Origin: Lactiplantibacillus songbeiensis
GTDB lineage: Bacteria > Bacillota > Bacilli > Lactobacillales > Lactobacillaceae
Assembly: GCF_005405125.1 (NCBI RefSeq)
Contig: NZ_BJDL01000031.1
Span: 1-46,186, forward strand
DNA: 46,186 nucleotides
Reading direction: 5' to 3'
Under the pieces are notes generated by a model, which had not been told where the DNA came from, did no database searches, and worked only from the letters and a program-made list of their open reading frames with translations. Positions 5,607 through 41,302 of this stretch are shown here, piece by piece; position 1 is the stretch's first letter, and the number at the start of each line of letters is the position of its first letter. A program made the translations under genes and the position numbers.

Positions 5607-6120
5607 ACTTCCCACTCCGGTTGGGCTGGATTGATGCTGGAACGTGGTGGCCACGTTTTTGAGCCATGGAGCCGTCTCAAAAGCCGGGCTTTGACTAAGG
5701 CCGGGACAAATCACCCGGTCTAAGTCAAACGACACCACTGAGCATCATCCAGCCCGCCTACGCTAATCAACACTTAACTATAAACTATGGCGTTGAAATG
5801 CCTTTAGAACAAAGACACCTTAGTTACGGCTTTGAAAAGGCATTAAAACTAACTACACTGACTTGCCGTATCGACATCGACGACCCTGTCCTATTCAGCC
5901 AAGTCCAACTTAGCAAAAAATAATCGTTCATGTTTAAATACTCAGTCATTAACGCCGGGCGGTCCAGAATTGGCTCAGTGGTGTCGTTTATCTTAGTCGT
6001 GGTTTTCGACTTAGATAAAGCCCGATTTTCGAGACCGCCCTTTGGCTCGAAAACGTGGCCACCACGTTCCAGCCAATTCTGGACCAACCAGAGTGGCAAT
6101 TTAATCCAACTAGTTACGAC
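5607..6120. repeat. Composite palindromic element, locus 1 (class C forward + class B reverse)
   Basis: Two structured modules in inverted orientation. The forward class C module (about 5610-5766) has outer arms GGGCTGGATTGATGC and GCATCATCCAGCCC. The hairpin loop is CCATGGAGCCGT, and a long stem (5686-5728) carries a central A-A mismatch. The reverse class B module (5951-6100) has arms CCAGAATTGGCTC and AGCCAATTCTGG. A spacer of about 190 bases separates them and contains a 41-codon ORF. Forward means the strand reading GCTGGAACG. The same architecture recurs at other loci in this window. Confidence 0.85.
5798..5923 (+). other. Small ORF or gene remnant inside repeat spacer
   Basis: A 41-codon ATG-to-TAA frame in the spacer of the composite repeat, reading MPLEQRHLSYGFEKALKLTT at its start. 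The composition looks protein-like (mixed charged and hydrophobic residues, no low complexity). No ribosome binding site is visible, and the frame stays open for several codons upstream of the ATG. It could be the 3-prime remnant of a decayed gene into which the repeat inserted, or chance. I do not recognise it. Confidence 0.3.
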
Positions 6121-6210
6121 TTATTTAAAAATAAAATCATTTTAAGAACACCGGTATATCAGTCTTTCTAAAAAAATGTTAAGTCAACTAAAAAAAGTAG
6201 GGTCTTTCTA

Positions 6211-6239
6211 TTGCAACCGCTTACAAAAACTGTTAGTAT
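6211..6239 (+). promoter_or_regulatory. Promoter with overlapping cre for large ncRNA
   Basis: TTGCAA (6211-6216), a 17-nt spacer and TAGTAT (6234-6239) form a promoter. TGCAACCGCTTACA (6212-6225) matches the cre consensus TGNAANCGNNNNCA at every fixed position and covers the -35. The layout mirrors that of pflB, so CcpA repression of the transcript is predicted. Confidence 0.7.
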
Positions 6240-6246
6240 ACTAAGT

Positions 6247-6896
6247 GAGGAAAGGAATTACAACCTCGTTAGCAAGCTTCTCAATAAAGAGTTTGATAGA
6301 TGTCGCCAACACGTTAGACATCTAAGTTCCACAGGTTATGGTCGTTACCGAGACCAGTTCAGGCATTGCTTAGCGTTATCGGTTCAGCGAGTGTCGGGAG
6401 ATTTGCGTTGGATGACTGAACGTTGATCCTTGAATAAACGGTAACCGCATCACGTTTTAATTGGTGTTATCAAGACTATCTAGATTTAACTTTAAGAGTT
6501 GGAAACAGGTGTCGCCGATGACCAGATTTAAGTTCCACTAGTACCATGGTTCCTGAGATTTAAGTACCATTAGTACCAGTTCCATTGTAGGCTTAGGCAT
6601 TAAAAGTTTAAACGGAGGTGCATGTCTGTTACGAAGACATTACCAAGTTATAAACGCGAGTTCGACTTTCGTTAAAACCCGTTTGAAGAGTCACGAATCA
6701 AGTAAGGATTTACTTTTGATCGACTAAAGCAGATAGATACAATAAGTACGGGTTAGTCCGTTAGAAGTTGGACACACGTAAAATTGAATAGTATGAAGGT
6801 GTAACGCATTAAGAACACTGAACAACGTAATCTTGTTAACGGTGGTTATTCCTCATAAGTAGAACTCAAGTTGAGAAGCCTTGGGTTCTATTTTTT
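6247..6896 (+). ncRNA. Large structured non-coding RNA candidate (about 650 nt)
   Basis: The stretch has a promoter, a terminator and no credible ORF. Its ends pair: 6254-6276 (GGAATTACAACCTCG...) is complementary to 6832-6852 (...GGTGGTTATTCC) over about 20 base pairs with a few bulges, enclosing the whole transcript. Internal hairpins include AGATGTC/GACATCT near 6298-6323, GTTCAG/CTGAAC near 6382-6421, and ATGTCT/AGACAT at 6622-6640. A 28-30 nt direct repeat beginning AGATTTAAGT lies at 6524-6553 and 6556-6583. The size and closed multibranch layout recall the ornate large RNAs (ROOL, GOLLD) known from lactobacilli, but I cannot confirm membership from memory. It is not tmRNA, RNase P RNA or 6S RNA by visible motifs. 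Confidence 0.65.
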
Positions 6897-6897
6897 T
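6861..6897 (+). terminator. Terminator of the large ncRNA
   Basis: AGAACTCAAG pairs with CTTGGGTTCT (one G-T wobble), followed by seven T residues. Confidence 0.85.
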
Positions 6898-6987
6898 GTG
6901 CTTAGAAACTCGATTCGGAGCGGCTAGGACCGATACTGGTTAAACTTGCCACCTCCCACTATTCAAGATACCTTGCGATTTAGTGAC

Positions 6988-7019
6988 TTCGTGGTGTCAT
7001 ATATAATTGACATCATGAA
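6988..7019 (+). promoter_or_regulatory. Inverted-repeat operator over the -10 of the Xre-DUF3278 operon
   Basis: TTCGTGGTGTCA, an 8-bp spacer TATATAAT, then TGACATCATGAA. The two 12-bp arms match at 10 of 12 positions, and the spacer contains the -10 hexamer TATAAT (7002-7007). This is the expected place for an autoregulatory Xre-type repressor site. The -35 is weak. Confidence 0.6.
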
Positions 7020-7112
7020 CACCAGGGACTACACTTTAGGCGTCAAAAAATCAGTCGCCAGCTCTCAATCAAAAAAGCGCGACTGAAACGCTGCTATCAA
7101 GGAAGTCCTGCT

Positions 7113-7301
7113 TTGAATCAAGTCAAAAAATATCGTCAACAATCCCACCTGACTCAATTTCAGCTCGCTCAAAAAATCGGTGTTGCTCGTCAAACCATTA
7201 ATTTAATCGAAAACGACAAATATAACCCTTCACTGGATCTTTGTATTCACTTAGCTAGAATCTTACAAACAGATTTGAATCATTTGTTTTGGGAGGGATA
7301 A
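7113..7301 (+). CDS. Xre-family HTH regulator (small)
   Basis: A 62-residue protein that is almost entirely one helix-turn-helix domain. The Cro/C1 pattern is visible in LTQFQLAQKIGVARQTIN followed by ENDKYNPSLDLCIHLARIL. It starts at TTG, supported by AAGGAAG upstream. It is translationally close to the next gene: only two bases separate its stop from the following ATG. Small regulators of this type are commonly paired with DUF3278 membrane proteins. An inverted repeat over the promoter suggests autoregulation. Confidence 0.85.
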   Translation: MNQVKKYRQQSHLTQFQLAQKIGVARQTINLIENDKYNPSLDLCIHLARILQTDLNHLFWEG

Positions 7302-7303
7302 CC

Positions 7304-7834
7304 ATGGCAGGCAAAAAAAGTTTACGTGATACGATCGTCAAACACTGGTTTGGTATTTCTGGAACTTTTGATGAATATAAACGTCAAGAAGTGAATCGGA
7401 TTGGCACGAACGCTTTTATGCTTTTGCTGCCGTTCAGCTTCATTTCACTGTTTGTCGCTGGATTGACTGTTGCCAATCGTCCACAGGATGCCATCAGCAT
7501 TGTTATTTCACTTCAAGTTGGCTACTTCATGTTAGTCATTTGCCCCTACGTTCTACTTGCCTCACACCGTGCCCACATTACCGATACTGAAGTAACTACC
7601 CATGATCTCAAACAAGCCTACTTGCACATTGGACAAAAGATGAGCTTCAGTGCCGTTTACACTGGACTATGGTTTTATTTTCAAACTACCCTACTGGACC
7701 ATTACTTTGATGGCACTAACTTACTTCACACACTAACACAATGGCATTATATTTGGACTGGCATTTGGACCGGCGGCATCATGGGTATCATCATTGGTAT
7801 TCAGGCACTGATTCGACTAAAAAAATACCGTTAG
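7304..7834 (+). CDS. DUF3278-type membrane protein
   Basis: A 176-residue protein with four hydrophobic segments around residues 38-58, 64-86, 112-130 and 148-170 and a basic C-terminus (RLKKYR). An N-terminal cytoplasmic stretch of about 35 residues precedes them. The start at 7304 is chosen because GGGAGGG lies 7 bases upstream; a further in-frame ATG-like start at 7289 would overlap the regulator. Pairing with a tiny Xre regulator is the usual context for this uncharacterised family. Function is unknown. Confidence 0.7.
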   Translation: MAGKKSLRDTIVKHWFGISGTFDEYKRQEVNRIGTNAFMLLLPFSFISLFVAGLTVANRPQDAISIVISLQVGYFMLVICPYVLLASHRAHITDTEVTTHDLKQAYLHIGQKMSFSAVYTGLWFYFQTTLLDHYFDGTNLLHTLTQWHYIWTGIWTGGIMGIIIGIQALIRLKKYR

Positions 7835-7895
7835 TAACTCATAATCAATCAAATACAACATATACGTACCAGATAGTGCTAGCCTAACCATCTAC

Positions 7896-7932
7896 TGTAA
7901 TCGTTTACACAATCAGTCACAACCTTTATACT
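7896..7932 (+). promoter_or_regulatory. Aldo/keto reductase promoter with cre
   Basis: TGTAATCGTTTACA (7896-7909) is an exact match to the cre consensus and contains the -35 TTTACA (7904-7909). A 17-nt spacer leads to -10 TATACT (7927-7932). CcpA repression is predicted. Confidence 0.75.
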
Positions 7933-7960
7933 AGAGGAACTAACAAGGAGGTTTTTTAAC

Positions 7961-8881
7961 TTGAAAACACTCAATTTAGGTCAAAGTGGCTTGCAAGCTT
8001 CCACCGTTGCCCTGGGGATTATGCGTATGAATGCCCTCACTGTGGATCAAGCCACGACTGTGTTGGAATCCACTGTTGATTTAGGGATCAACTACATTGA
8101 TTCCGCGGATATTTATGGTAATGGTGACTCTTCTAAAATTTTTGGTGCCGCTTTAAAGCAAGCAAATGTTAACCGCGACAATCTTTATATTCAATCTAAA
8201 GGTGGGATTGTCCCAGGGAAACGTTATGATTTCTCCAAGCAACATATCCTTGATGCTGTAGATGGCGAATTACAACGGCTAGGCGTGGATTACCTCGACA
8301 CCTTTCTCTTGCACCGTCCTGACCCATTGATGGACCCTAGCGAAGTCGCAGACGCCTTTAACGCACTACAGGCTAGTGGTAAAGTCCGCCATTTCGGCGT
8401 TTCTAACTTTAATCCCATGCAGGTTGACTTATTGCAATCAGCTTTGAGTCAACGCTTAATGATCAACCAACTCCAATTCGGCATCATGCATACTGGAGCC
8501 ATTGATTTCGGACTACACACCAATATGCAAGATGACCGCAGTCTTAATCATGATGGCGAAATCATTGAGTATTCACGGTTACATCACATGACGATCCAGG
8601 CTTGGTCCCCTTATCAATATGGGATGTTTGCCGGAATCTTCCTCGATAATCCGAAGTTTCCAAAGCTAAATGCTGCCATGCAAACCTTAGCTGATGAAAA
8701 ACAGACGACTAAGTCAGCCATCGCAACTGCTTGGATCTTACGTCATCCGGCTAACATGCAAGTTATCCTAGGCACAATGAATCCTAAACATCTCGCCGAG
8801 AATGCCGCTGGCGCCGATATCGACTTAACCCGTCAGGAATGGTATGACATCTACTTCGCTGCTGGTAACGATTTGCCATAA
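7961..8881 (+). CDS. Aldo/keto reductase (YdhF-like)
   Basis: A 306-residue NAD(P)H-dependent oxidoreductase of the aldo/keto reductase barrel family. The catalytic tetrad is visible: Asp and Tyr in YIDSADIYG (about residues 47 and 52), Lys in IQSKGG (about 80) and His in LLHRPDP (about 114). It starts at TTG, with AAGGAGG about nine bases upstream. It is monocistronic, with its own cre-overlapped promoter and terminator, so it is probably expressed when preferred sugars run out. The substrate cannot be read from the sequence. Confidence 0.92.
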   Translation: MKTLNLGQSGLQASTVALGIMRMNALTVDQATTVLESTVDLGINYIDSADIYGNGDSSKIFGAALKQANVNRDNLYIQSKGGIVPGKRYDFSKQHILDAVDGELQRLGVDYLDTFLLHRPDPLMDPSEVADAFNALQASGKVRHFGVSNFNPMQVDLLQSALSQRLMINQLQFGIMHTGAIDFGLHTNMQDDRSLNHDGEIIEYSRLHHMTIQAWSPYQYGMFAGIFLDNPKFPKLNAAMQTLADEKQTTKSAIATAWILRHPANMQVILGTMNPKHLAENAAGADIDLTRQEWYDIYFAAGNDLP

Positions 8882-8883
8882 TA

Positions 8884-8920
8884 AAAAAGGTTCGAGCCGA
8901 AATTGACTCGAGCCTTTTTT
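8884..8920 (+). terminator. Aldo/keto reductase terminator
   Basis: AAGGTTCGAG pairs with CTCGAGCCTT, followed by T6. Confidence 0.85.
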
Positions 8921-9112
8921 AGGTTGGAGGTAGCGCCCTAATTTCACTCAGTGACACCCTTTTTCTTAATTTTATCGCAAGATTCTTTAAATCGCGCTAA
9001 AATCAAGTTTTTATATTTCGAGTTTATACTAAAATGCGCTATCATTAACAGTATAAGACCAACTTTTATTATGCCATTCAATTAAACTGCAATTATCAAG
9101 GGGAGCCCTGCC

Positions 9113-9556
9113 ATGTCAAAATTTAATATCTCACTCGTTAGTGCCGACCGCGCCAAAGCGATGCTAACGGAATATAAGGAACAACGTAAAAATTCCGTTC
9201 CACAGCTAACAGCACCTGGTCGCTACATTTTACCAGATTACAAAATGACGCGACGTCGGGCTGCTTTTAAAATTGTGAAGCATACCTTCTTGACGCCACA
9301 CTACAAATCCTACGTTGCCCTGGACTCTGACAATGGGCACACCTTGTGGATGCGTAACTTCGGCTCATTGACAGAAGCCCTATTCTGGTTAGAAACTGGA
9401 CTTAAAATCAGTGATACCGACTCCCACTCCAATTATAAAGAGTGGAGCGACAAGCACACCGCTGAAATTGCGACCTTCAAAGATCTTTTACGGCAACGTC
9501 CGAAAGCTAAGCAAAAGAAGATCGGCAAAAAAGCTGTTAAGAAACCCAATAAATAA
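9113..9556 (+). CDS. Conserved hypothetical protein, basic
   Basis: A 147-residue soluble protein that I do not recognise. It is strongly basic, with a lysine-rich tail (KAKQKKIGKKAVKKPNK), a basic MTRRRAAFKIVKHTF patch in the middle, and an aromatic segment containing LWMRNFGSLTEALFWLETGL. No signal peptide or membrane segment is seen. A ribosome binding site (AAGGGGAG) and terminator frame it as a single-gene unit. The charge suggests nucleic-acid contact, but that is only a guess. Confidence 0.65.
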   Translation: MSKFNISLVSADRAKAMLTEYKEQRKNSVPQLTAPGRYILPDYKMTRRRAAFKIVKHTFLTPHYKSYVALDSDNGHTLWMRNFGSLTEALFWLETGLKISDTDSHSNYKEWSDKHTAEIATFKDLLRQRPKAKQKKIGKKAVKKPNK

Positions 9557-9557
9557 C

Positions 9558-9597
9558 AAAAAACGGCATCGACTTTCAAGTCAACGCCGTTTTTTTG
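9558..9597 (+). terminator. Terminator after hypothetical protein
   Basis: AAAAAACGGC...GCCGTTTTTTT hairpin with a GACTT/AAGTC inner stem. Confidence 0.8.
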
Positions 9598-9804
9598 ATG
9601 TTCAATATACTGATGCCCATAATCCCCATAATTAATGGTCATTAGCTAGAACATCCCCCAAAAATAATGACTAACCCAATCTCTTTTGACCGTGGTATGC
9701 CGACCACTGATGACTTATGTTTAAAACACAGGTCAAGTATATGAGCTTGGTGTAAATCTACGACCATTTCAAAGTAAAGTTATTGTATAGATTTTGTAAA
9801 GTAG

Positions 9805-10192
9805 CACACTTGGGGCTAGTTAAAATTGCCGCCTACCGGTTGGTTTCTAAAACGCTGGAACGCCATGGGCCATTTTGAAGCCAAAGAACGGTCTTCAAAA
9901 CTGGCCTTGGTCTAAGTCCGAGTAGACCACTCGCACTAAGGCCAACGACACGGCTGAGCATTTTAGAAACCAACCTCTCGGCTAAATGTATGGATTTAAT
10001 GATAACTATCCGATAATTAACGACGGGCGGGCCAGAATTGGCTCAGTGGTGTCGTTTATCTTAGTCGTGGTTTTCCGACTTAGATAAAGCCCGGCTTGTG
10101 AGACCGCCCCTTGGCTCACAAACGTGGCCACCACGTTCCAGCCAATTCTGGGCCAACCAGAGTGACAAGTAAAATCCAACTAGCACCAAACG
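9805..10192. repeat. Composite palindromic element, locus 2 (class A forward + class B reverse)
   Basis: Full-length composite. The class A module (about 9826-9987) has outer arms GGTTGGTTTCTAAAACGC and GCATTTTAGAAACCAACC, hairpin TTTTGAAG/CTTCAAAA with loop CCAAAGAACGGT, and a long stem with an A-A mismatch. The class B module (about 10021-10170, reverse) has hairpin stem TGTGAG/CTCACA with loop CCAAGGGGCGGT. The outer ends are inverted copies of CTTGGNGCTAGTTNNA. The bases between 9643 and 9804 hold nothing I recognise. Confidence 0.85.
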
Positions 10193-10202
10193 TAACGTAC
10201 AC

Positions 10203-10251
10203 AAAAACCCGGTTAATTGTGCCTGAAAGGCAATGCAATTAACCGGGTTTT
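10203..10251 (-). terminator. BCCT gene terminator (bidirectional)
   Basis: A 15-16 bp stem AAAACCCGGTTAATTG with its complement, with T-rich ends on both strands. Confidence 0.85.
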
Positions 10252-10276
10252 ATTGAACTTTGTTTTCAGAAACAGT

Positions 10277-15038: not shown

Positions 15039-16712
15039 TTATTTATCGACCGAAATAAAATCAAAACTGTCATAGTCGAACAATCCTCGATCGGTTAATT
15101 TTAACGTTGGAATCACTGGTAACGTTAGAAAAGACAAGGTAATAAACGGATCAAAGGCAATCGGCTGATCACATAATTGATTATAAGCCGTCTTAATCTC
15201 GGCTAACTGTTGTGCGACCGTCTCATAGCCGGCGGCGGATAATAGGCCCCCAATCGCTAACGGCAACGTCGCCGTCACTTGTTGATCATCTGACACCGCG
15301 ATGCCGCCATTAGTATGCGTAATCTGCGTGATAGCGCGTAAAATTGCCAAATCCGAGGTCCCGACTGCCACAATATTATGGGCATCATGCGCCACTGAAC
15401 CAGCAACTGCCCCGTGCTTCAATTGAAAGCCATGTACCAAGCCAACGCCAACCCGACCGGTATGACGATGCCGCTCCACAACAACCATTTTTAAAATATC
15501 CTGGTCCAAATCCGTCACAAATTGACCTGCAACCACTGGCACTTGCTTAATCAGGTGATCTGTTTCAATATGGTTCGGCTGCACACCAATCACGTTGGCC
15601 TTTCCCGTAGTTAATGGTAACGCCAAGTCCGCGAGCGTGGCGTGCTGCTGAATCCGAGTCGCCGTAAAGGCTAATGGTTTGGTGGTTGCTTCTTCGTCAA
15701 TCCATATTCCGTTCTTCATCGTTCGGCTAACCTTGACTTGGTCAACATCATCTAAAACCACTAGATCTGCTAATTTACCGGGCGTCAAACTACCCCGATC
15801 GGTTAAACGATGGGCGTTAGCAGCATGATAGCTGGCCATTGTATAGGCTAATGCTGGCCGAATCCCGCTAGCAATGGCCAGCTTAACGTTATAGTCAATC
15901 GACCCTTCCGTCATTAAATCCGCAATCGTCTTATCATCAGTACAAAAGGCAAACCGACTGGCATTCGCTTCCGTGACAGCGCCAATGGTTCCCTGCACAT
16001 CGCGTTCAACAGTCCCCTCTCGTAAGAAGACAAACATGCCTGCCTTAACGCGTGCTAACGCTTCTGGGACCGTCGTACATTCATGGTCCGTATCTAAACC
16101 AGCATTGCGCATCACGTTCAACTGATGCGCATCTAAGCCGGCCGCATGCCCATCAGCGTGATAGCCATGGGCGTTGGCATCGCGAATCTTAGCCAGGGTA
16201 TCGGCATCCCCACGTTCAACGGCACCATAATCCATCACTTCCGCGAGTCCACGTACTTCCGGCTGCGCATATAACGGTCGTAAGTCAGCCGCATGCAATG
16301 TTGCCCCATTATCATCAAATGGTACACAAGGGACTGAAGATGGCAACATGAAGAAAACATCGAGTGGTGTCTGGCGCGCATCATCAATCAAATATTGGAT
16401 TCCCGCGATTCCCGCCACATTAGCCAATTCATGCGGATCAGTCGCAATCGCGGTAACCCCATGTTGTAACAGGACTTTACCTAGTTCACTCGGCGCCACC
16501 ATCGCACTTTCCATGTGTACATGGGCATCAATCATGCCCGGGACAATCCATTTGCCGGTTGCATCAACCTGTTCACGGGCCTGGTACGGTTCATCTTTTA
16601 AATTACTAATAATATGGCCATGATCAATCCACAGACTCGTGGTTTCAAATTCACGAGTCAACACGTTTAATACTTGGGCCCCGGTAATAACCATATCCAC
16701 TGTTTTCGTCAA
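15039..16712 (-). CDS. ade: Adenine deaminase
   Basis: A 557-residue amidohydrolase that converts adenine to hypoxanthine and ammonia for purine salvage. The metal-binding IDAHVHMESAM motif lies at about residues 61-71, then the family-typical ATDPHELANVAG, then PSSVPCVPF. The C-terminal half carries conserved HRHTGRVGVG and HDAHNIVAVG segments. Length is normal for bacterial AdeC. It starts at TTG with AAGGAG upstream. Transcription is controlled by a purine riboswitch-terminator ahead of the gene. Confidence 0.95.
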   Translation of the reverse strand: MTKTVDMVITGAQVLNVLTREFETTSLWIDHGHIISNLKDEPYQAREQVDATGKWIVPGMIDAHVHMESAMVAPSELGKVLLQHGVTAIATDPHELANVAGIAGIQYLIDDARQTPLDVFFMLPSSVPCVPFDDNGATLHAADLRPLYAQPEVRGLAEVMDYGAVERGDADTLAKIRDANAHGYHADGHAAGLDAHQLNVMRNAGLDTDHECTTVPEALARVKAGMFVFLREGTVERDVQGTIGAVTEANASRFAFCTDDKTIADLMTEGSIDYNVKLAIASGIRPALAYTMASYHAANAHRLTDRGSLTPGKLADLVVLDDVDQVKVSRTMKNGIWIDEEATTKPLAFTATRIQQHATLADLALPLTTGKANVIGVQPNHIETDHLIKQVPVVAGQFVTDLDQDILKMVVVERHRHTGRVGVGLVHGFQLKHGAVAGSVAHDAHNIVAVGTSDLAILRAITQITHTNGGIAVSDDQQVTATLPLAIGGLLSAAGYETVAQQLAEIKTAYNQLCDQPIAFDPFITLSFLTLPVIPTLKLTDRGLFDYDSFDFISVDK

Positions 16713-16744: not shown

Positions 16745-16869
16745 AAAAAATCGACCGACGCCACCACAAAGCGAGTTGTGGTGGTATCGATCGACTCAAT
16801 TCGCTTATAGTCCAGTGTTTACGGCACTGGGTAGAAACTCGCCATCCATATCATGGCATTATATAGGCA
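16745..16869 (-). promoter_or_regulatory. Purine riboswitch (guanine-type) with terminator
   Basis: The minus strand reads TATATAATGCC, then the conserved GTTTCTACC and CCGTAAACAC loops, then GGACTATAAG. This is the three-way-junction purine aptamer (16801-16869). The specificity base in GACTAT is C, which is characteristic of guanine/hypoxanthine-binding members; adenine binders have GATTAT. A terminator follows (16745-16793: ATCGA...CCACCAC/GTGGTGG...TCGAT, then T6). Ligand binding should stop transcription of the adenine deaminase gene. Confidence 0.9.
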
Positions 16870-16894
16870 ATTCATTTATTTTTGATTGTCCGTA

Positions 16895-17050: not shown

Positions 17051-17370
17051 CACGCTTGATGTTAATTACCGCCTACCGATTGATTTCTTAAACATTGGAA
17101 CGCCATGCGCCATTTTAAAGCTAAGACTGAACATTTTAGAAACCAACCACTCAGCTAAATGACCGGACTAAGAATAATCAACAGTTAACTTTTTAATACC
17201 GTTATTTAACGTCGGGCGGACCAACATTGGCTCAGTGATGTCGTTTATCTTGGTCGGTAGTTTTCCGACCTAGATAAAGCCCGGCTCTTGAGACCGCACT
17301 ATGGCTCAAAAACGCGGCCACCACGTTCCAGCCGATGCTGGCCCAACCAGAGTGGCAAGTAAACAACCAA
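17051..17370. repeat. Composite palindromic element, locus 3 (degenerate)
   Basis: A class A forward module with an internal deletion (about 17068-17160: left arm, CGCCATGCGCCATTTT, then directly the right arm CATTTTAGAAACCAACC) and a full class B reverse module (17211-17361). The B hairpin stem is TTGAG/CTCAA around loop CCATAGTGCGGT (read forward). The ends are more decayed than at other loci. The remaining gap bases, 16924-17050, show nothing further. Confidence 0.8.
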
Positions 17371-20590: not shown

Positions 20591-20920
20591 ACGCTTGGTG
20601 TTAGTTGAACTTGCCGCCTACCGGTTGGTTCCTAAAACGCTGGAACGCCATGGGCCAACGACACGGCTGAGCATTTTAGAAACCAACCTCTCGGCTAAAT
20701 GAGTCGGTTAAATAATTTAACATTAATTGACAATTTTCCAGTAGTTAACGTCGGGCGGGCCAGAATTGGCTCAGTGGTGTCGTTTATCTTAGTCGGTGAT
20801 TTTCCGACTTAGATAGAGCCCGGCTTCCGAGACCGCACTGTGGCACGAAAACGCGGCCACCACGTTCCAGCCAATTCTGGCCCAACCAGAGTGGCAATTT
20901 AAGCCAACTAGCACCAAACG
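20591..20920. repeat. Composite palindromic element, locus 4 (A deleted + B full)
   Basis: The class A forward module has lost its interior: the left half ends CGCCATGGGCCA and continues directly as ACGACACGGCTGAGC. This is consistent with recombination between two GGCCA copies. Class B reverse (20750-20899) is complete, with a TTCCGAG hairpin arm. The inverted ends are ACGCTTGGTGTTAGTTG and CAACTAGCACCAAACG, flanked on both sides by AATATT. Confidence 0.85.
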
Positions 20921-23170: not shown

Positions 23171-23336
23171 GTTAACAACGGGCGGCCCAAAATTGGCTCA
23201 GTGGTGTCGTTTATCTTAGTCATGGTTTTCGACTTAGATAAAGCCCGGCTTTTGAGACCGCTCTATGGCTCGCAAACGTGACCACCACGTTTCAGCCGAT
23301 TCTGGGCCAACCAGAGTGACATTTCACACCAAACGT
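23171..23336 (-). repeat. Palindromic element, locus 5 (class B only)
   Basis: A complete class B module in reverse orientation, with arms CCAAAATTGGCTC and AGCCGATTCTGGG. It ends near CACCAAACG. The class A partner is absent, leaving only the linker CGTTAGTTAACAACGGGCGG. The outer arms are partly mismatched, suggesting decay. Confidence 0.8.
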
Positions 23337-25800: not shown

Positions 25801-25955
25801 TGATCAGTCTGTTCGCCGTGTCGAGACACTTAGCTGGGTGATTTTTGCCCAGGTTAGTGTCTGGGCCGACTTTTAAGACGTGGTTTTTGGCTTGAAAGCG
25901 CCCTGCAGACCGCAGTTTGGCTGCAGGGTCCGCCCCACCGCGAACAGACTGATCA
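25801..25955 (-). repeat. Palindromic element, class D
   Basis: Perfect 16-bp outer arms TGATCAGTCTGTTCGC and GCGAACAGACTGATCA. Read on the minus strand, the hairpin CCCTGCAG/CTGCAGGG carries loop CCAAACTGCGGT. A long stem, AGACACTAACCTGGG with CCCAGCTAAGTGTCT, contains the A-A mismatch. CGACACGGC then precedes the right arm. A second hairpin is CTTTCAAG/CTTAAAAG. Only short motifs are shared with classes A-C, yet the layout is the same. Confidence 0.75.
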
Positions 25956-28375: not shown

Positions 28376-28777
28376 GCACACTTGGTGCTAGTTGGTTTAA
28401 ATTGCCGCCTGCCGGTTGGTTCCTAAAATGCTGGAACGCCATGGACCATTTTGAAGCCAAAGTTCGGTCTTCAAAACTGGCCTTGGCCTAAGTCCGAGCA
28501 GACCACTCGCACTAAGGCCAACGACACGGCTGAGCATTTTAGGAACCAACCTCTCGGCTAAATTTGTGGTCGACAATAGATCATCATTAATTCACGTTAA
28601 TTAACGACGGGCGGGCCAGAATTGGCTCAGTGGTGTCGTTTATCTTAGTCGGTGATTTTCCAACTTAGATAAAGCCCGGCTTTCGAGACCGCACTGTGGC
28701 TCGAAAACGTGGCCACCACGTTCCAACCGATTCTGGACCAACCAGAGTGGCGATTTAAACCAACTAGCACCAAGCGT
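28376..28777. repeat. Composite palindromic element, locus 7 (best-preserved A + B)
   Basis: The cleanest copy. Terminal inverted repeats at 28381-28406 and 28749-28774 agree at 25 of 26 positions. Class A forward (28404-28562) has perfectly complementary outer arms GGTTGGTTCCTAAAATGC and GCATTTTAGGAACCAACC, with loop CCAAAGTTCGGT. The linker holds CGTTAATTAACG. Class B reverse (28605-28757) has loop CCACAGTGCGGT in a TTTCGAG/CTCGAAA stem. It ends ten bases before the stop of the next gene. Confidence 0.9.
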
Positions 28778-34008: not shown

Positions 34009-34043
34009 ATGCTAATCACCCTTTCAACTTGTTTACAGTTTCT

Positions 34044-34607: not shown

Positions 34608-34630
34608 TTCTTTATTAGAACGTTAAAAGA

Positions 34631-34774: not shown

Positions 34775-34938
34775 GATAATCGCCTCTTTTATGATGGAAA
34801 CGGAACCAATGTCCGTTACAAGTTCATTATAGTGCTAAAACGTCTTAATGGCGCATTTTTGTTTTAAAAATTTTGAAACGCTTAACTTGCATTCTGTAAT
34901 AATAAGATTTACAGTTAAGACATTCAGGAGGGGATCAT

Positions 34939-35577: not shown

Positions 35578-35593
35578 AATTTAATCACAACTC

Positions 35594-35626
35594 AAAAAAT
35601 CAGCGACTAACTTCGCTGATTTTTTA
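35594..35626 (+). terminator. SDR gene terminator
   Basis: AAAAAATCAGCG/CGCTGATTTTTT stem and loop. Confidence 0.85.
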
Positions 35627-35775
35627 ATACGCTTTTCATTTTTAACCCCTTCAAATTAGGCTTTTAAAATCACGAACCTTTTGCGTTGACCCTACTAAAC
35701 TGCGGTGTTAAATTTAAGACTCATTTTGAAAATAACTCGGGTTTTCTGACCCAGTTTTCAAGGAGGCGCCACCTA

Positions 35776-36228
35776 ATGAAATGGTTCGTAAAAAAGTTCA
35801 CCGGTCTAACGACCACCCAACTACACGACATCTATCAACTACGCGCTAAGACGTTTGTTCAAGAACAAGCCCGTAGCTACCAAGATCCTGATAATACCGA
35901 CTTTGACGCCCGCCATATCTTTGCTTACGATGGCAATCAACTGGTGGCTTACGCGCGCATCTATGAACATGACGGTCTAGTGACTTTCGGCCGCATTACG
36001 ACTGATAGTACCTATCGTGGAACCGGCCTTGGTAAACAATTGATGAATCACGTCATGGCAATTTTAAAAACCCACTACGCCAATGCCACGATTGAAATCG
36101 ACGCCCAAACTCAAGTCCAGCATTTCTATGAAAAATTTGGGTTAACCGTTGCTGGTGACCCCTTCATGGACCTCGGTGCCCAAGTCATCAAGATGCAGGC
36201 ACCAGCTCGTGCGTTAGTTTTAATTTAA
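35776..36228 (+). CDS. GNAT acetyltransferase, ElaA-like
   Basis: A 150-residue N-acetyltransferase of the ElaA subgroup. The opening WFVKKFTGLTTTQLHDIYQL with RAKTFVQEQ is typical of ElaA, and the acetyl-CoA loop appears as TYRGTGLGKQLM (R/Q-x-x-G-x-G). The last strand includes FYEKFGL. The start is set at 35776 by AGGAGG at seven bases. A hairpin (GGGT/ACCC within TTGAAAA...TTTTCAA, 35732-35762) lies just upstream of that site and may limit translation. The acceptor substrate is unknown. Confidence 0.87.
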   Translation: MKWFVKKFTGLTTTQLHDIYQLRAKTFVQEQARSYQDPDNTDFDARHIFAYDGNQLVAYARIYEHDGLVTFGRITTDSTYRGTGLGKQLMNHVMAILKTHYANATIEIDAQTQVQHFYEKFGLTVAGDPFMDLGAQVIKMQAPARALVLI

Positions 36229-36236
36229 AAAATAAT

Positions 36237-36863
36237 CTAATCCTGTGAATCGAGAATCTGTTTTAGCGCGGCTAAATCAGCATTAACGGTTGGCAGGATT
36301 TTTTTGAACCGTCGACTATATGACGGATGATACAACGGAAAGAGGCGGTAATTGACCGTGGTTAATTCAAAACGCTGGTCAGCTGTTGACCATTGGCGAA
36401 TCGGCTGGGTTAATAATTGGCCATGCACCGCACTGATTTTGACTTTGGGTCCCAATAATCGCTGTAACCCGGTATTCCCCAATGGCACCAGTAGCCGATC
36501 TGGCAACTGCTGTAATTCAACATCTAGAAGTGGCGCACTGGCTGCAATCTCGGCTGGTGTTGGGCGCCGATCCCGTTTTAATCCCGTCGGTCCTAACTGG
36601 TAAGGCCGTGAACGAACTGCACCAGTTAAATAGACTTCTGAGCGCGTCAACCCAAGTGCCGCTAACCAGCGATCCAATTCTTTGCCAGCTGGGCCTTGAA
36701 AGGGGTGGCCAACCTGGGCTTCCACTTTTCCAGGCGCCTCTGATACCATCACTAAAGCTGGGGTTAAACTCCCCTCACCTGGCACAAACCCTTCTAAATG
36801 GTCAAATTGCGTTAGTAAAGCACGCCCCTGTGCTTGCTGTGTGGTTGTTAAAAAACTAGTCAT
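36237..36863 (-). CDS. Uracil-DNA glycosylase, family 4-like, without Fe-S ligands
   Basis: A 208-residue protein of the uracil-DNA glycosylase superfamily. Motif A appears as VSEAPGKVEAQVGHPFQGPAG, and motif B as LYHPSYSRRF with its catalytic-type His. The middle segment EVYLTGAVRSRPYQ matches the position where family 4 enzymes have a ligand Cys (KCRP), here Ser. The protein contains no cysteine at all, so the 4Fe-4S cluster of typical family 4 enzymes is absent. It probably still excises uracil from DNA, but activity should not be assumed. Confidence 0.82.
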   Translation of the reverse strand: MTSFLTTTQQAQGRALLTQFDHLEGFVPGEGSLTPALVMVSEAPGKVEAQVGHPFQGPAGKELDRWLAALGLTRSEVYLTGAVRSRPYQLGPTGLKRDRRPTPAEIAASAPLLDVELQQLPDRLLVPLGNTGLQRLLGPKVKISAVHGQLLTQPIRQWSTADQRFELTTVNYRLFPLYHPSYSRRFKKILPTVNADLAALKQILDSQD

Positions 36864-36939
36864 TTGAATCCCTCCGATTGTTTACTTCATCCTTCTAATA
36901 ATATTGCGATTATCCGGAAGTACCTGTTTACGATACTAC

Positions 36940-36983
36940 AAAGCCCTACACCGTTCATAGTTGCGTAAACGGGTAGGGCTTTC
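36940..36983. terminator. Terminator downstream of the DMT transporter gene
   Basis: AAAGCCCTAC/GTAGGGCTTT with inner CGTT/AACG. It lies between the UDG gene start and the transporter 3-prime end and can act on the minus strand. Confidence 0.8.
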
Positions 36984-36995
36984 GTCTTAAAGTGA

Positions 36996-37910
36996 CTATT
37001 CTATTCCAGGTTCACTCCGGTAACGTTGCAAGATATAAATCGCCAGTACCACTAAAACAGAACCAATGATCTCAACGACACTAACCTTTAGATTCAAGAA
37101 AATAATGCTTAAGACAAATGTCACGACTGGTTGCACGGCATCCACAATGCTAACAACCGCAGAAGGCGCGTATTGCAAACTGTGTAGTAGGGATAAGAAT
37201 GCAAAAATCGTCCCAATCAACACAATCGCCCCAATTGAGATCACTAGTTTCGGTGTAATTGCTGGCGCTCCAATCCATAACGGATGATAAGTATTGAATA
37301 AAATTCCGGCAATCAAGGTCCCCCAGCCTAGAATGACGACTGGCGAGTTTTCAGCGACAATTTTCCGTGGTAACACCACGTATAACGCGGCTGTAACCCC
37401 TGATAAGATTCCCCAGACCAATGCATCGGTCGGAATAGCCAACTCATGGATATTCCCCCGCGTAATGGCTAAGAAGACCCCTAGTAAGGATACCCCGAAA
37501 GCTAGCATATCTGTTCGTAAAGGCAGTTCCCGTTTAAATACCAGCGTTCCTAACACGATGAATAATGGACTTAAGTATTGCAGAATTGTAGCTGCCGCCG
37601 CGGTTCCACGTTCAATACTGACATAGAACGTATACATATTCGCCATCAAGCCCAATGTCGCATACGCAACTAATTGCGCGATTGACCACCATGACTTAAA
37701 GACTTTAAAGATGCCACGCCCTTGTTGCATCGCACCGATTGCTAACAAGATGACCCCGGCAGATAAGGTCCGGACCGATAAGAACCAGTCAGCCGGAATG
37801 GCTTGGTTCTGAGAGACAAACTGCATGACCGTCCCCGAGATTCCCCATAAAGTCGAGGCGAGCATCGCCCACATGATACCCTTCATATAACGATTAGTTG
37901 TTGTTTGCAA
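36996..37910 (-). CDS. EamA/DMT-family transporter
   Basis: A 304-residue membrane protein with ten hydrophobic segments in two repeated EamA halves; the second starts near VWGILSGVTAALYVVLPRKI. The conserved MWAMLASTLWGISGT opening and the YTFYVSIERGTAAAATILQYLSPLFIVL segment are typical of drug/metabolite exporters. It starts at TTG with GAGGT upstream. The substrate is unknown. It is monocistronic. Confidence 0.87.
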   Translation of the reverse strand: MQTTTNRYMKGIMWAMLASTLWGISGTVMQFVSQNQAIPADWFLSVRTLSAGVILLAIGAMQQGRGIFKVFKSWWSIAQLVAYATLGLMANMYTFYVSIERGTAAAATILQYLSPLFIVLGTLVFKRELPLRTDMLAFGVSLLGVFLAITRGNIHELAIPTDALVWGILSGVTAALYVVLPRKIVAENSPVVILGWGTLIAGILFNTYHPLWIGAPAITPKLVISIGAIVLIGTIFAFLSLLHSLQYAPSAVVSIVDAVQPVVTFVLSIIFLNLKVSVVEIIGSVLVVLAIYILQRYRSEPGIE

Positions 37911-38058
37911 TTTTCATGACCTCAATCTAATTAATGGCAATATTATACCGGGGCTTGATTAAAGTTTCCTGAAAATTATCGTTTTATTTTCAACAAAAAA
38001 ATAGCGGGTACCGCCATTTTTGACGTCCTACTATCATTACAGAATTGATAATTATAAC

Positions 38059-38757
38059 CTAGAACAAAGTCCCAATATAGTAGTGAATAAACATCGTAAT
38101 AATCCCGACAATCACGTTACGAATAACGGCGGTCTTAACATTGCCTTTACCCAAAACTGCGGATAAATAACCGGTCAGTGCCACTGATAGCGACACGGCT
38201 AGAATGGTGCCTGGCCACTTCATCGCATTCGGCAAAAACGTCATCGCCACTAATGGGAAGACGCCTCCCGCTGAAGCCGAGAATAATGATGAAAATGCGG
38301 CGTCCCAAGGATTCATATAATGGCCTAATTGCATATCATATTTAATACTGATCATGGTTTCAAGTGGCTTCTTAGCTAACAGATCATCTGCAATCGCCAA
38401 TGCAGTCTTTTCGGTCACGCCTAGCGTCATATAATGCCGTTTAACCGCGGCGACTTCATCAGCATAATTCGTCTTCAGTAGCTGGCGTTCCTTTTCAACC
38501 ACGGCTTTTTCCGTATCCTTTTGGGTACTAACAGACGCATATTCCCCACCAGCCATTGAAAACGCACAGGCTAATAGGTCTGATAACCCAGCAATAAAAA
38601 TCGTAAATTGATTACTCGTTGCCGCGGCAACACTAAATAACACGCCGACAACGGTTAAAATGCCATCATTGGAGCCCAATACACCAGCACGCAGTGTATT
38701 GAGCTTTTCGTCCATCGTTTGTTTAGCCTTTTTAGGCTTTGATTTTGACATTAACAT
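38059..38757 (-). CDS. VIT/CCC1-family metal transporter, paralogue 2
   Basis: A 232-residue membrane protein of the vacuolar iron transporter family, which moves Fe(II) or Mn(II). The conserved first segment LRAGVLGSNDGILTVVGV and the acidic cytoplasmic loop are visible. MAGGEYASVSTQKDTEKA carries the Glu expected in the metal-binding region. Five membrane segments are predicted. It lies 18 bases downstream of a paralogue in the same operon. A weak terminator (GCGG/CCGC, 37997-38021) follows. Confidence 0.87.
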   Translation of the reverse strand: MLMSKSKPKKAKQTMDEKLNTLRAGVLGSNDGILTVVGVLFSVAAATSNQFTIFIAGLSDLLACAFSMAGGEYASVSTQKDTEKAVVEKERQLLKTNYADEVAAVKRHYMTLGVTEKTALAIADDLLAKKPLETMISIKYDMQLGHYMNPWDAAFSSLFSASAGGVFPLVAMTFLPNAMKWPGTILAVSLSVALTGYLSAVLGKGNVKTAVIRNVIVGIITMFIHYYIGTLF

Positions 38758-38775
38758 GTAATGATCCCCCTCAAC

Positions 38776-39453
38776 CTATGCGAACAAGTGACCAATAAAG
38801 TAAGTCACCAGCATCGTCAACAATCCTGAAATCACGTTGCGGACAACACCATGCCGCCAATCAGAATTACCCAACTTGGCCGCCACAAATCCCGTAATCG
38901 ATAACGCAATCGCCACCGCAATAATCGTTGCTAAGATCTTAACTTGTGGTGGAAAGAACGTAATCGAAACTAGTGGCAAGATTGAGCCGGTTGGAAATGA
39001 AATCATCGAGGCGATCCCAGCCGCATAGGGACTGATAAATTGGCTTGGATTAAAACCATACCGTTCACGCACGGTCGTGACTAACGCATCTTCTTGCATC
39101 ATTTCTTGGGTCGCCTGTTGCGCTAACGGGGTACTAATCCCTTGATCCACATATTTTTTAGTGACCATTGCGACTTGACCGTCATAGTCCGCTTTTAAAG
39201 CGGCCCGTTGATGACTAATGGCCATCTTTTGCGCATCTTTTTGCGTATTGACGGAGACATACTCGCCCATCGCCATCGAAATCGTCCCAGCCAACATCCC
39301 AGCTAAACCAGAAATCAAGATTGAGTAACTGTTGGTTGTCGCACCCGCGACCCCGACAACAATCCCGGCTACGGATAAGATCCCATCATTTGCCCCCATC
39401 ACGCTCGCCCGCAAAATATTGACGCGTTGTGCCAAGGTCATTTTCTTTTTCAT
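38776..39453 (-). CDS. VIT/CCC1-family metal transporter, paralogue 1
   Basis: A 225-residue protein of the same family as its downstream neighbour. It carries LRASVMGANDGILSVAGI, then MAMGEYVSVNTQKDAQKM, then a helical loop with repeated Glu and Met residues (TQEMMQEDALVTTVRERYG). The tandem pair suggests a heterodimer or two metals. In a Mn-accumulating lactobacillus, Mn(II) or Fe(II) export from the cytosol is plausible. A Fur/PerR-type box lies at the promoter. A leftward GGGGGCGG sequence precedes the ATG at 39453. Confidence 0.87.
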   Translation of the reverse strand: MKKKMTLAQRVNILRASVMGANDGILSVAGIVVGVAGATTNSYSILISGLAGMLAGTISMAMGEYVSVNTQKDAQKMAISHQRAALKADYDGQVAMVTKKYVDQGISTPLAQQATQEMMQEDALVTTVRERYGFNPSQFISPYAAGIASMISFPTGSILPLVSITFFPPQVKILATIIAVAIALSITGFVAAKLGNSDWRHGVVRNVISGLLTMLVTYFIGHLFA

Positions 39454-39476
39454 ACTGCCGCCCCCAAGTAACTACT

Positions 39477-39528
39477 TTATAATCATTATCATGTAATACA
39501 TGTTATTCCTTTAGTGGCTGAATTGCAA
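39477..39528 (-). promoter_or_regulatory. VIT operon promoter with Fur/PerR-type box
   Basis: Minus-strand -35 TTGCAA (39523-39528), 17-nt spacer, -10 TAACAT (39500-39505). TTATAATCATTATCA (39477-39491) matches the PerR consensus TTATAATNATTATAA except at one position. It covers the expected start of transcription, so repression by a Fur-family protein is predicted. Confidence 0.7.
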
Positions 39529-39623
39529 GCCTAATACCAATTAACTAATTAACTAAAGTTTTGTATCCCTAAAACTAAACCTAGTGTAACATCAATTTAA
39601 AAGTAACGTTATGTAAACATAAC

Positions 39624-39660
39624 AAAAAACCAACTAACTTTACACAAGTCAGTTGGTTTT
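39624..39660 (-). terminator. Choloylglycine hydrolase terminator
   Basis: AAAACCAACTGACTT/AAAGTTAGTTGG stem on the minus strand with T6. Confidence 0.85.
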
Positions 39661-39673
39661 AACCAATAGTCAT

Positions 39674-40660
39674 CTAATTAACATTATTAAATTGTTGTGC
39701 CGTTGCCAACGTAAATTCAGTTGGTTGCGCTGCGGTCATCAATTCTGGCGTCAAGGCAACCCGCGTGATCGTTTGGTCGTTGTAAGGTTGCATATAAAAA
39801 GCCGGTTCAGACATGCTCATGTACGACCGATATTGCGTATAATCCACTGAGCCATCCGCTTTAATCTTAACACCCTTTGGAATTTCGACCGAGTTCAACA
39901 TATGTGACAGCGCGTTAACTGCGGCACTCGTTGTCGCGACTGCTTCCGTATGTTCACGCATAAAGACCGTCCGCACAAAACGAGATGGTGACGTAAAATC
40001 ACCCGGCATTCCTAATGCACCCGTACCAGGACCAAAGGCATTAACCGTTAAATCGCCATATTGACGATTGGCATGCTGTTCAGGTTGTAATTGAACATAG
40101 TTACTTAAGTTCTTTAAATGCCAACCGAAATCAGGTGAATTCGTCATCACACCAACTGGATTCTTCATGTAGTGCATGCCATCAGATTGTTGTTCCAAAA
40201 CGTAAGTTGCACCACTCTTGTCACTGATAATCCAGTGTAAGGGTACGACAATGTTCAATAATGGGGCTTTAGCTTCTACGATCGTTAAGTTAGCTAAGCG
40301 GTCCCCAAGTTCTTGGGTACTCTTAACATTACCTAAAATCCACATCAAAACTTCATGCGGTGCCAGATTAATCTGACCATCGACTGGAGCGGCAGCATAA
40401 TGCGCTTGCCCAGCAAAGTATAAAGCCGCTGCGCTGACGCCATATTCATTGACCCCGTCGACATGAATATAGCCATCTAAATTACGCCCGGTACCGACAA
40501 AACTATACGGTGCGTCAAATCCGGTCTGATTAGTAACACTGCTAAAATGATGGTGGCGTGGCATCGCAACCGGGCGACCACCCAATTCAAAGCCAAAATC
40601 CATCGTCCGAGCTAAGAACTGGTCACCGCCCGTCGTTTGATACGTTAAACTAGTACACAT
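39674..40660 (-). CDS. bsh3: Choloylglycine hydrolase family (penicillin/acyl-homoserine acylase or bile salt hydrolase)
   Basis: A 328-residue N-terminal nucleophile hydrolase. After removal of Met1 the catalytic Cys2 is exposed (M-CTSLTYQ). Other active-site residues are visible: Arg18 and Asp21 in LARTMDF, Asn in MTNSPDF (near 175), and Arg in PSRFVRTV (near 228). Length and sequence agree with my memory of the third Bsh paralogue of L. plantarum, which is thought to be mainly an acylase rather than a strong bile salt hydrolase. It is monocistronic; the left neighbour is the VIT operon and the right neighbour a repeat locus. Confidence 0.87.
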   Translation of the reverse strand: MCTSLTYQTTGGDQFLARTMDFGFELGGRPVAMPRHHHFSSVTNQTGFDAPYSFVGTGRNLDGYIHVDGVNEYGVSAAALYFAGQAHYAAAPVDGQINLAPHEVLMWILGNVKSTQELGDRLANLTIVEAKAPLLNIVVPLHWIISDKSGATYVLEQQSDGMHYMKNPVGVMTNSPDFGWHLKNLSNYVQLQPEQHANRQYGDLTVNAFGPGTGALGMPGDFTSPSRFVRTVFMREHTEAVATTSAAVNALSHMLNSVEIPKGVKIKADGSVDYTQYRSYMSMSEPAFYMQPYNDQTITRVALTPELMTAAQPTEFTLATAQQFNNVN

Positions 40661-40770
40661 AGGGACTCACTTCCTTGATTTGAATACCTTTATTTTAGCA
40701 CCCCAAACCCGTTAAAACACAGATTTGCGCTAAATATTTTACTATTATCAGTTTATTCTGTGGCTTTTCG

Positions 40771-41302
40771 TTTAGCTAGACTAAATTAGATTGCCGCTAC
40801 GGGTGGGCTGGCTTGACGCTGGAACGTGGTGGCCACGTTTGGAAGCCATAATGCGGTCTCCCAAGCCGGGCCTTGACTAAGGAATTCACCCGGTCTAAGT
40901 CAAACGACACCACTGAGCGTCATCCAGCCCGCCCTGCGCTAATAACAACCGAAATTGTGATGTGGATTCAACCAGAAACAGTTTTCTGCAAATTTATTTG
41001 AACGTGCTTATGCCAAAATATTAATCACTAATCACTCACAAACACTACCATCCTCAATCAATAATTCTTTCACCTATACTTGAACAGTTCTTTTTAATCC
41101 ATAATTATCGATTAGACAACCACTACGCTCCAGATTCACTACAATTAACTAACGCCGGGCGGGCCAGCATTGGCTCAGTGGTGTCGTTTATCTTGGTCGG
41201 TGATTTTCCGGCCTTAGATAAAGCCCGGCTTTCGAGACCGCACTGTGGCTCGAAAACGCGGCCACCACGTTCCAGCCAATGCTGGCCCAACCAGAGTGGC
41301 AA
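40771..41302. repeat. Composite palindromic element, locus 9 (class C forward + class B reverse)
   Basis: Class C forward (40790-40945) has arms GGGCTGGCTTGACGCT and AGCGTCATCCAGCCC, loop CCATAATGCGGT and the long stem TTGACTAAGG/CCGGTCTAAGTCAA. Class B reverse (41153-41302) has arms CCAGCATTGGCTC and AGCCAATGCTGG. Note that the B arms here read GCATTGG instead of GAATTGG, on both sides. A spacer of about 205 bases contains no gene. Confidence 0.85.

What the first reader, a model, noticed from the sequence alone, without database searches (positions are those of the whole stretch)
5607..41302. Interspersed composite element family with structure conserved across four sequence classes
At about ten intergenic loci (5.6, 9.8, 17.1, 20.6, 20.95, 23.2, 25.5, 25.8, 28.4, 30.7, 40.8 kb) the same module recurs. 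It has an outer helix, a hairpin with a 12-nt loop of form CCANNNNNCGGT, a long stem with one fixed A-A mismatch, and CGACAC just before the right arm. Stem sequences differ between classes A-D but stay complementary. Examples of the hairpin stem are TTTTGAAG/CTTCAAAA, TGTGAG/CTCACA, TTTCGAG/CTCGAAA and CCCTGCAG/CTGCAGGG. Covarying stems with a constant loop and a constant mismatch indicate selection on folded RNA or single-stranded DNA. I know of no named family that fits.
Basis: partly seen in the sequence, partly recalled or inferred. Interest (0 to 1): 0.88.

Follow-up and report, generated by a model that had tools for sequence, protein, structure and literature searches.

The report
Folding mobile repeats filling Lactobacillaceae genomes
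Hundreds of copies of a small self-folding DNA repeat, mostly in facing pairs and inserted like a tiny transposon, are scattered between the genes of this lactic acid bacterium, and relatives occur in many related genera, yet no named family was found that fits it.

Summary
The window holds 14 model-detected arms plus deletion remnants. Most intact arms fold as a three-way junction with fixed irregularities (GGAAC/TG internal loop, bulged T, A·A mismatch); covariation is strong. Arms are halves of a ~390-400-bp element: two convergent arms (82 convergent, 0 divergent, 7 tandem close pairs), ~16-bp terminal inverted repeats, ~9-bp target duplications; one copy of L. dongliensis has its unoccupied site in this genome. 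This Lactiplantibacillus genome holds several hundred arms. The fold occurs in 91 of 350 Lactobacillaceae genomes, 13 of 40 genera, and in no other genome of a 398-genome Bacilli draw. Rfam has no match. Best reading: a MITE-like, DNA-transposed element whose arms are kept as folded DNA rather than RNA (G·T pairs rare, about as rare as A·C), probably as recognition structures for mobilisation. The enzyme was not found; Y1/RAYT is missing in 14 of 23 carriers tested. Oddity: in class A two hairpin-loop bases differ even between the closest copies, yet were unchanged in the orthologous copies compared (only two are class A).

The parts
5636..5743 (+). arm core, class C, left arm of a pair
   Evidence: CM R1 108.9 bits; fold
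5973..6073 (-). arm core, class B, right arm of the 5.6-6.1 kb pair
   Evidence: CM 113.8 bits
9806..10193 (.). A-B composite with terminal inverted repeats, 388 bp; no clear target duplication (2 of 9)
   Evidence: aligned
9854..9959 (+). arm core, class A
   Evidence: CM 103.6 bits
10041..10142 (-). arm core, class B
   Evidence: CM 112.5 bits
17046..17176 (+). class A arm remnant with internal deletion; also present, differently deleted, in L. dongliensis
   Evidence: the repeat finder; alignment
17230..17332 (-). arm core, class B
   Evidence: CM 105.0 bits; orthologous copy in L064
20591..20921 (.). A-B composite, A arm missing P2 and P3; target duplication AACAATATT, 9 of 9
20639..20672 (+). 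class A arm remnant (P2-P3 deleted)
   Evidence: CM 24.3 bits
20769..20871 (-). arm core, class B
   Evidence: CM 103.0 bits
20951..21000 (-). outer-stem-only remnant resembling a class C arm (approximate ends)
   Evidence: read by eye; not found by the model
23196..23296 (-). arm core, class B, single; L. dongliensis has a two-arm element of other arrangement at the corresponding place
   Evidence: CM 102.1 bits
25561..25664 (+). arm core, class B, left arm of the 25.5-25.95 kb pair
   Evidence: CM 95.0 bits
25801..25955 (-). class D arm with an additional hairpin
   Evidence: CM 29.3 bits for 25813-25909; folds; 26 matches in the genome
28378..28777 (.). A-B composite, 400 bp; target duplication 7 of 9
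28430..28535 (+). arm core, class A
   Evidence: CM 101.9 bits
28625..28727 (-). arm core, class B
   Evidence: CM 112.2 bits
30745..30833 (+). class B remnant, P2-P3 deleted; followed by a class A end
40818..40918 (+). arm core, class C
   Evidence: CM 103.4 bits
41173..41276 (-). arm core, class B, right arm of the 40.8-41.3 kb pair
   Evidence: CM 113.0 bits

Best explanation
The loci are copies of one family of non-autonomous mobile DNA elements. The full unit is ~390-400 bp: terminal inverted repeat (ACGCTTGGTGCTAGTT in this genome), arm, short spacer, arm in opposite orientation, terminal inverted repeat; it inserts with a ~9-bp target duplication, as many DDE transposases do (recalled). 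Each arm can fold as a three-way junction: a long P1 broken by a GGAAC/TG internal loop, P2 ending in CC-7nt-GG with a bulged T, and P3 with an A·A mismatch. Shown: fold, covariation, convergent pairing, inverted ends, target duplications, insertion polymorphism, spread in the family. Inferred: the fold is kept as DNA (single strand or cruciform); it serves as the recognition structure by which a trans-acting enzyme processes or copies the element; selection acts chiefly on mobile lineages, while resident copies decay, sometimes by losing the hairpins. Not known: the enzyme. The scrambled loop dinucleotide of class A suggests that the P2 hairpin tip is altered when the element is copied (inference).
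For: Duplications: 8 of 23 end-paired copies match at 7 or more of 9 positions (0.45 expected, maximum 4 in 2000 shuffles); mean 4.0 against 2.9. Unoccupied site: L. dongliensis L294 2694-3083 (390 bp) against unbroken own sequence in L110. 82 convergent, 0 divergent, 7 tandem close pairs. Covariation in two alignments. DNA level: G·T 37 and A·C 66 (own), 23 and 61 (L. dongliensis), 9 and 7, 14 and 9 (two sets of relatives); tRNA control 14 and 0. Fixed mismatches. Loop dinucleotide: most variable columns of 45 own class A copies; likeness flat from 3 to 26 differences between copies; first and third of 21 variable columns by the close-pair measure in the own genome, first and second of 24 in L. 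dongliensis, there with 9 close pairs only; 0 of 30 loop positions changed in 16 orthologous arms.
Against: No autonomous element: no transposase seen between arms in 446 kb own plus 386 kb L. dongliensis or in 20 regions with terminal-repeat matches, and no dispersed repeat over 450 bp in the own sample. 15 of 23 end-paired copies do not reach 7 of 9. 30 of 100 arms in the own sample have no close convergent partner. Terminal repeats differ between genera while the fold is kept, so one DDE enzyme cannot be assumed; target duplications were tested only in Lactiplantibacillus. Orthologous cores diverge less (41 of 1603) than adjacent flanks (143 of 3194, p = 0.001), and paired sites less than unpaired (16 of 989, 25 of 628, p = 0.005), hinting at some host-level constraint, although orthologs were chosen partly by similarity. 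The G·T count set aside two conserved non-Watson-Crick columns per set, and deviations in young copies are largely post-insertion noise. Only two of the orthologous arms with readable loops are class A; the other stable ones are class B or D.
Confidence: 0.55

Rival explanations
1. RNA-level element: transcription entering from either side meets a canonical arm first, and the folded RNA acts as a terminator, processing site or regulator.
For: The convergent arrangement gives each strand a canonical arm at its 5' side. About a quarter of intergenic regions in the stretches examined carry one (103 of 398). RNA folds are stable. A single diverged arm lies just upstream of what reads by eye as a thioredoxin start in a relative (L014).
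Against: G·T pairs 9 of 799 and 14 of 1369 counted cells, about as rare as A·C. No marked preference by gene orientation: 28 of 87 convergent, 22 of 92 divergent, 53 of 219 tandem regions occupied. No Rfam relative. No compensatory change among 16 paired-site changes in orthologs.
Confidence: 0.2
2. A REPIN/REP-type system mobilised by a Y1 (HUH) transposase (RAYT or IS200/IS605).
For: REPINs are also inverted doublets forming hairpins in extragenic space (passages of PMC3116915), and TnpAREP reads hairpin bulges and mismatches (passages of PMC8266576). The own genome has 3 Y1 matches.
Against: 14 of 23 carrier genomes tested have no PF01797 match, among them G068 (1 contig), G243 and G258 (3 contigs each), while both element-free genomes tested have matches. 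Inverted ends and target duplications are not Y1 features (recalled).
Confidence: 0.06
3. A domesticated chromosomal DNA structure (nucleoid, gyrase or SMC site, or spacer) that spread by transposition and is now kept by the host.
For: Spread over 13 of 40 genera; cores diverge less than flanks and paired sites least; intergenic density.
Against: Insertion sites differ between close species. L. mudanjiangensis shows no BLAST match to the elements at the window sites it covers, about 11.7-33.5 kb. Hairpins are deleted at several sites. G018 and G019 of the same genus have no match at the threshold used.
Confidence: 0.13
4. An ordinary MITE in which complementarity is kept by mutation (template switching within hairpins, gene conversion between copies) rather than by selection.
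For: Perfectly complementary stem variants occur in many combinations; 11 of 15 pairs of features in class B show no significant linkage. Two syntenic arms look replaced.
Against: Template switching would erase the fixed A·A mismatch and GGAAC/TG loop, which persist across genera. Paired-site changes in the 16 retained orthologs are all single, none compensated.
Confidence: 0.06

Closest known systems
[quoted passage not shown]
   Same: Short, non-coding, terminal inverted repeats, target duplications, high copy, intergenic; QMITE2 of Coxiella has 7-9-bp direct repeats (figure legend in PMC10969869).
   Different: ~100-nt folded arm cores with covarying stems and fixed mismatches kept across 13 genera while terminal repeats change; no parent found.
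REPINs / BIMEs (REP doublets, RAYT-associated)
   Same: Inverted doublets forming hairpins, high copy, extragenic (passages of PMC3116915).
   Different: Arm several times longer than a REP, three-way junction, terminal inverted repeats and ~9-bp duplications, no PF01797 match in 14 of 23 carriers tested.
attC sites of integrons (recalled)
   Same: Fold kept while stem sequence varies; recognition through unpaired bases.
   Different: Not in cassette arrays; transposon-type ends and duplications.
BOX, RUP and SPRITE of Streptococcus pneumoniae
   Same: Interspersed intergenic repeats of a Gram-positive genome (listing of PMC3049150; passages of PMC10969869).
   Different: No direct comparison was made; the model matched none of the other 397 genomes of the class draw, which includes further Lactobacillales families.

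Membership tests
MITE | terminal inverted repeats | tested here: met
   287 matches to the 16-nt end in the genome, up to 3 mismatches, against 40 for the reversed control; alignment
MITE | target-site duplication of constant size | tested here: met
   ~9 bp; 8 of 23 with 7 or more of 9 matches, above all 2000 shuffles; 8 bp in some copies; Lactiplantibacillus only
MITE | insertion polymorphism or empty site | tested here: met
   L294 against L110, clean; L291 against L112, element absent but the flank next to it has diverged
MITE | no coding capacity | tested here: met
   ~400-bp units; no transposase seen between arms
MITE | derives from a known autonomous element (typical, not strictly defining) | tested here: inconclusive
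   none found in 20 regions with terminal-repeat matches or in the own sample; the genome was not scanned exhaustively
REPIN/REP | Y1 transposase (RAYT) in the genome | tested here: not met
   no match in 14 of 23 carriers
REPIN/REP | short REP palindrome with 5' GTAG tetranucleotide | tested here: not met
   no such conserved 5' foot in the alignments, read by eye
IS200/IS605 relatives | no target duplication and no inverted ends (recalled) | tested here: not met
   both are present
any Rfam family | match to a covariance model | tested here: not met
   no match to the element at gathering threshold in the window, 0 matches at E up to 5 for 9780-10220
attC | recombined by an integron integrase | not tested
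   -

The most novel reading that the evidence does not exclude
A previously undescribed class of DNA transposon in Lactobacillaceae whose ends are recognised as three-way-junction DNA, with a copying step that opens or re-synthesises the P2 hairpin tip and so writes a new, near-random dinucleotide into the loop at each amplification. (Lowered from 0.30 to 0.25 on re-check: in-place stability of the loop rests on only two class A orthologs.)
Probability: 0.25. Interest if true: 0.9.

Novelty: new variant of a known kind. Interest (0 to 1): 0.72.

Why it matters
A repeat found in about a quarter of the intergenic regions examined, with relatives in 13 of 40 genera of an industrially central family, appears undescribed in the searches made. 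It links DNA secondary structure to transposon-type insertion, and its loop dinucleotide may record copying events. It coincides with breaks in the short-read assembly, separates insertion histories of close species and may affect expression of many genes used in fermentation strains.

Tried and rejected
Y1/RAYT mobilisation: rejected by distribution. ISLre2-type transposase (PF06782): no match in 21 genomes, but the control rang nowhere, so absence is not shown. Autonomous parent: sought by wide convergent pairs, terminal-repeat pairs and repeated long DNA (which showed only tandem repeats within three stretches and one overlap of fetched stretches); none found. A terminal repeat near an ATG only re-found element ends. 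Plasmids: no match for three queries, nine records for a fourth; four of the nine were fetched and two hold model matches (L. brevis p5, L. plantarum L75). Link of the class A loop dinucleotide to target sequence or partner arm, 32 copies, 62 tests, 6 below 0.05: the two loop bases are linked to each other; left -5 and right +6 (p 0.006, 0.004) were judged chance; the partner arm has the same pair in 1 of 24. The close-pair test in class B had 5 and 2 close pairs, too few.

Dropped before counts: of 21 arms aligned with L. dongliensis, 5 were dropped: one gapped class D arm of the window, two non-orthologous L107 rows, and two syntenic class A arms with 14 and 29 changes that look replaced. 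In the first of those two the loop letters differ; in the second they agree while the stems differ. If both were true orthologs, the loop would have changed in one of four class A cases. In the G·T/A·C count, weakly paired rows (5 of 100, 1 of 28, 8 of 91, 1 of 48) and two columns below 60% Watson-Crick per set were set aside: the G·T beside the GGAAC loop, and a P2 position that is T·G in 68 of 94 own arms and A·C in 27 of 47 of set A7.

The 20 own and 20 L. dongliensis stretches were not random; several were placed where hits were known, so density and copy-number estimates lean upwards. An earlier count gave 83 arms for the 400-kb sample; the recount is 86.
Full report
WHAT IS THERE. The window is contig C31 of a 3.03-Mb genome in 50 contigs. 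A protein of the window is 97% identical to one of Lactiplantibacillus dongliensis 218-3, and the DNA is syntenic at about 83-98% per long block. Genome G004 is that strain: its contig C35 has the record's length (36,646) and gives the same alignments to the window as the named locus. The repeats of the finding are present. A covariance model of the arm core (106 positions, 32 pairs, 19 sequences) finds 14 arms in the window; 17.05(+), 20.95 and 30.7 kb are deletion remnants.

FOLD. P1 is a long outer stem with a GGAAC/TG internal loop (84 of 100 own arms, 76 of 91 in L. dongliensis, 25 of 28 in set A5, 37 of 48 in set A7). P2 ends in CC, seven loop bases, GG and a bulged T. P3 carries an A·A mismatch inside CTAAG/CTAAG (92 of 100, 87 of 91, 23 of 28, 45 of 48). 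Class D has an additional hairpin. As DNA, 8 of 8 window arms tested are more stable than all 200 shuffles each; in one the best fold rearranges P2. On a sequence-only MAFFT alignment of 18 arms, 16 of 36 pairs change on both sides, score 0.377 against 0.117 (0 of 500 shuffles) and at most 0.090 for slid partners; further pair types were reached by 7 of 500. On 28 arms, 24 from other genera, 27 of 32 pairs, 0.521 against 0.153, 0 of 500 (fitted to the model).

UNIT. Alignment of 15 A-B copies shows common outer ends. In the window plus 400 kb, 23 copies have both ends; 8 have at least 7 of 9 matching flanking bases, against 0.45 expected and a maximum of 4 in 2000 shuffles. One search shows further copies with 8-9-bp duplications. 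L. dongliensis has a 390-bp copy at a site where the own genome has unbroken sequence. Close pairs are 35 convergent, 0 divergent, 3 tandem in the own sample (under 450 nt), 32, 0 and 3 in L. dongliensis, and 15, 0 and 1 in other genomes, 8 of the 15 in genus g16 (under 700 nt). In the own sample 30 of 100 arms have no close convergent partner.

NUMBERS. All 150 scored of 1652 first-look candidates matched in the own genome. 86 arms in 400 kb of fetched stretches, plus 14 in the window, would give about 650 arms per genome, biased upwards because some stretches were chosen at known hits. 287 end matches against 40 for the reversed control. L. dongliensis: 91 arms in 386 kb. By crude gene of 191 arms have their midpoint outside genes, and 103 of 398 intergenic regions of at least 60 nt carry one, without marked preference for gene orientation.

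SPREAD. 91 of 350 Lactobacillaceae genomes, 13 of 40 genera, with only the best 11 candidates scored per genome and strict filters. In a class-wide draw of 398 genomes only the own genome matched; of the 20 listed without a match two are of the same family. Named carriers: L. dongliensis, L. mudanjiangensis (weak pair) and Levilactobacillus koreensis, and plasmids of Levilactobacillus brevis and L. plantarum.

DNA OR RNA. In stems, G·T is 37 against 66 A·C (own), 23 against 61 (L. dongliensis), 9 against 7 and 14 against 9 (sets A5 and A7, partly overlapping), with 774 and 1332 Watson-Crick cells in the last two. Nine tRNAs give 14 G·T and 0 A·C of 189 (the tRNA finder favours standard pairs). 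Structural RNAs normally keep G·U as a settled state (recalled), so the data favour DNA. Limits: two conserved non-Watson-Crick columns per set were set aside, and young copies carry post-insertion noise, which alone would give equal G·T and A·C.

THE LOOP DINUCLEOTIDE. In 45 class A copies of the own genome two adjacent P2 loop positions have diversity 0.68 and 0.71, against a mean of 0.085. Likeness of the pair is flat (0.51-0.62 of 2) between copies that differ at 3 to 26 other positions and falls to 0.39 and 0.26 in the most distant bins. By the ratio of close-pair to overall difference the two positions rank first and third of 21 variable columns (49 close pairs) in the own genome, and first and second of 24 in 31 L. 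dongliensis copies, there with 9 close pairs. In 16 retained orthologous arms none of 30 loop positions changed; most of these arms are class B or D, and only two class A orthologs have a readable loop, both unchanged. So the pair seems to change with copying, not in place; this is inference. Two syntenic class A arms were dropped as replaced; in one of them the loop differs.

RESIDENT COPIES. Orthologous cores differ at 41 of 1603 sites, the adjacent flank at 143 of 3194 (p = 0.001), distant sequence at 1525 of 25227. Paired sites changed 16 of 989 times, unpaired 25 of 628 (p = 0.005); none of the 16 was compensated. Deletions removing P2 and P3 are seen at several sites. Resident copies thus seem to be decaying, with some slowing at paired sites that may be constraint or selection of the sample.

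MOBILISER. Not found. PF01797 has no match in 14 of 23 carriers tested and matches in both element-free genomes tested. No transposase was seen between the arms or terminal repeats examined.

LITERATURE. Searches over the open-licence PubMed Central library showed no description of this family in their listings; most papers of subscription journals are outside it. I saw passages of PMC3116915, PMC8266576, PMC10969869 and PMC2267715, and only the listing and start of the abstract of PMC3049150.

VERDICT. A real, large, apparently undescribed family of mobile folded DNA repeats; MITE-like in its insertion, REPIN-like in its paired hairpins, but not a REPIN by the Y1 test and not in Rfam.

Noticed in passing
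16788-16886 (-): Purine riboswitch (RF00167, 73.8 bits) just upstream of an adenine deaminase gene at 15039-16712 (-), beside the 17 kb element.
   Followed up: partly
L014 1511-1660 (genome G009): A strongly diverged single arm between a terminator-like hairpin and what reads by eye as the start of a thioredoxin gene; an old insertion or a recruited regulatory element.
   Followed up: partly
Own genome contig ends (e.g. C8, C9, C12, C17, C18, C27, C29, C34): Several contigs end within about 60-400 bp of an element terminal repeat, so the elements seem to break the short-read assembly.
   Followed up: no
20.6 and 30.7 kb; L064 near 13.9 kb: Deletions that remove P2 and P3 nearly exactly, as expected if hairpins form in vivo and are skipped in replication.
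   Followed up: partly
L096 1-1819, L098 1-1827, L108 1958-2778: Long tandem repeats, two of them at contig starts, perhaps repeat-rich surface proteins.
   Followed up: no
Class B arms, own genome: The P2 upper stem exists as at least eight complementary three-base variants; 11 of 15 pairs of features show no significant linkage, suggesting mosaic exchange between copies.
   Followed up: partly
P2 stem, one fixed position: A wobble-like mismatch is T·G in 68 of 94 own arms but A·C in 27 of 47 of set A7.
   Followed up: no
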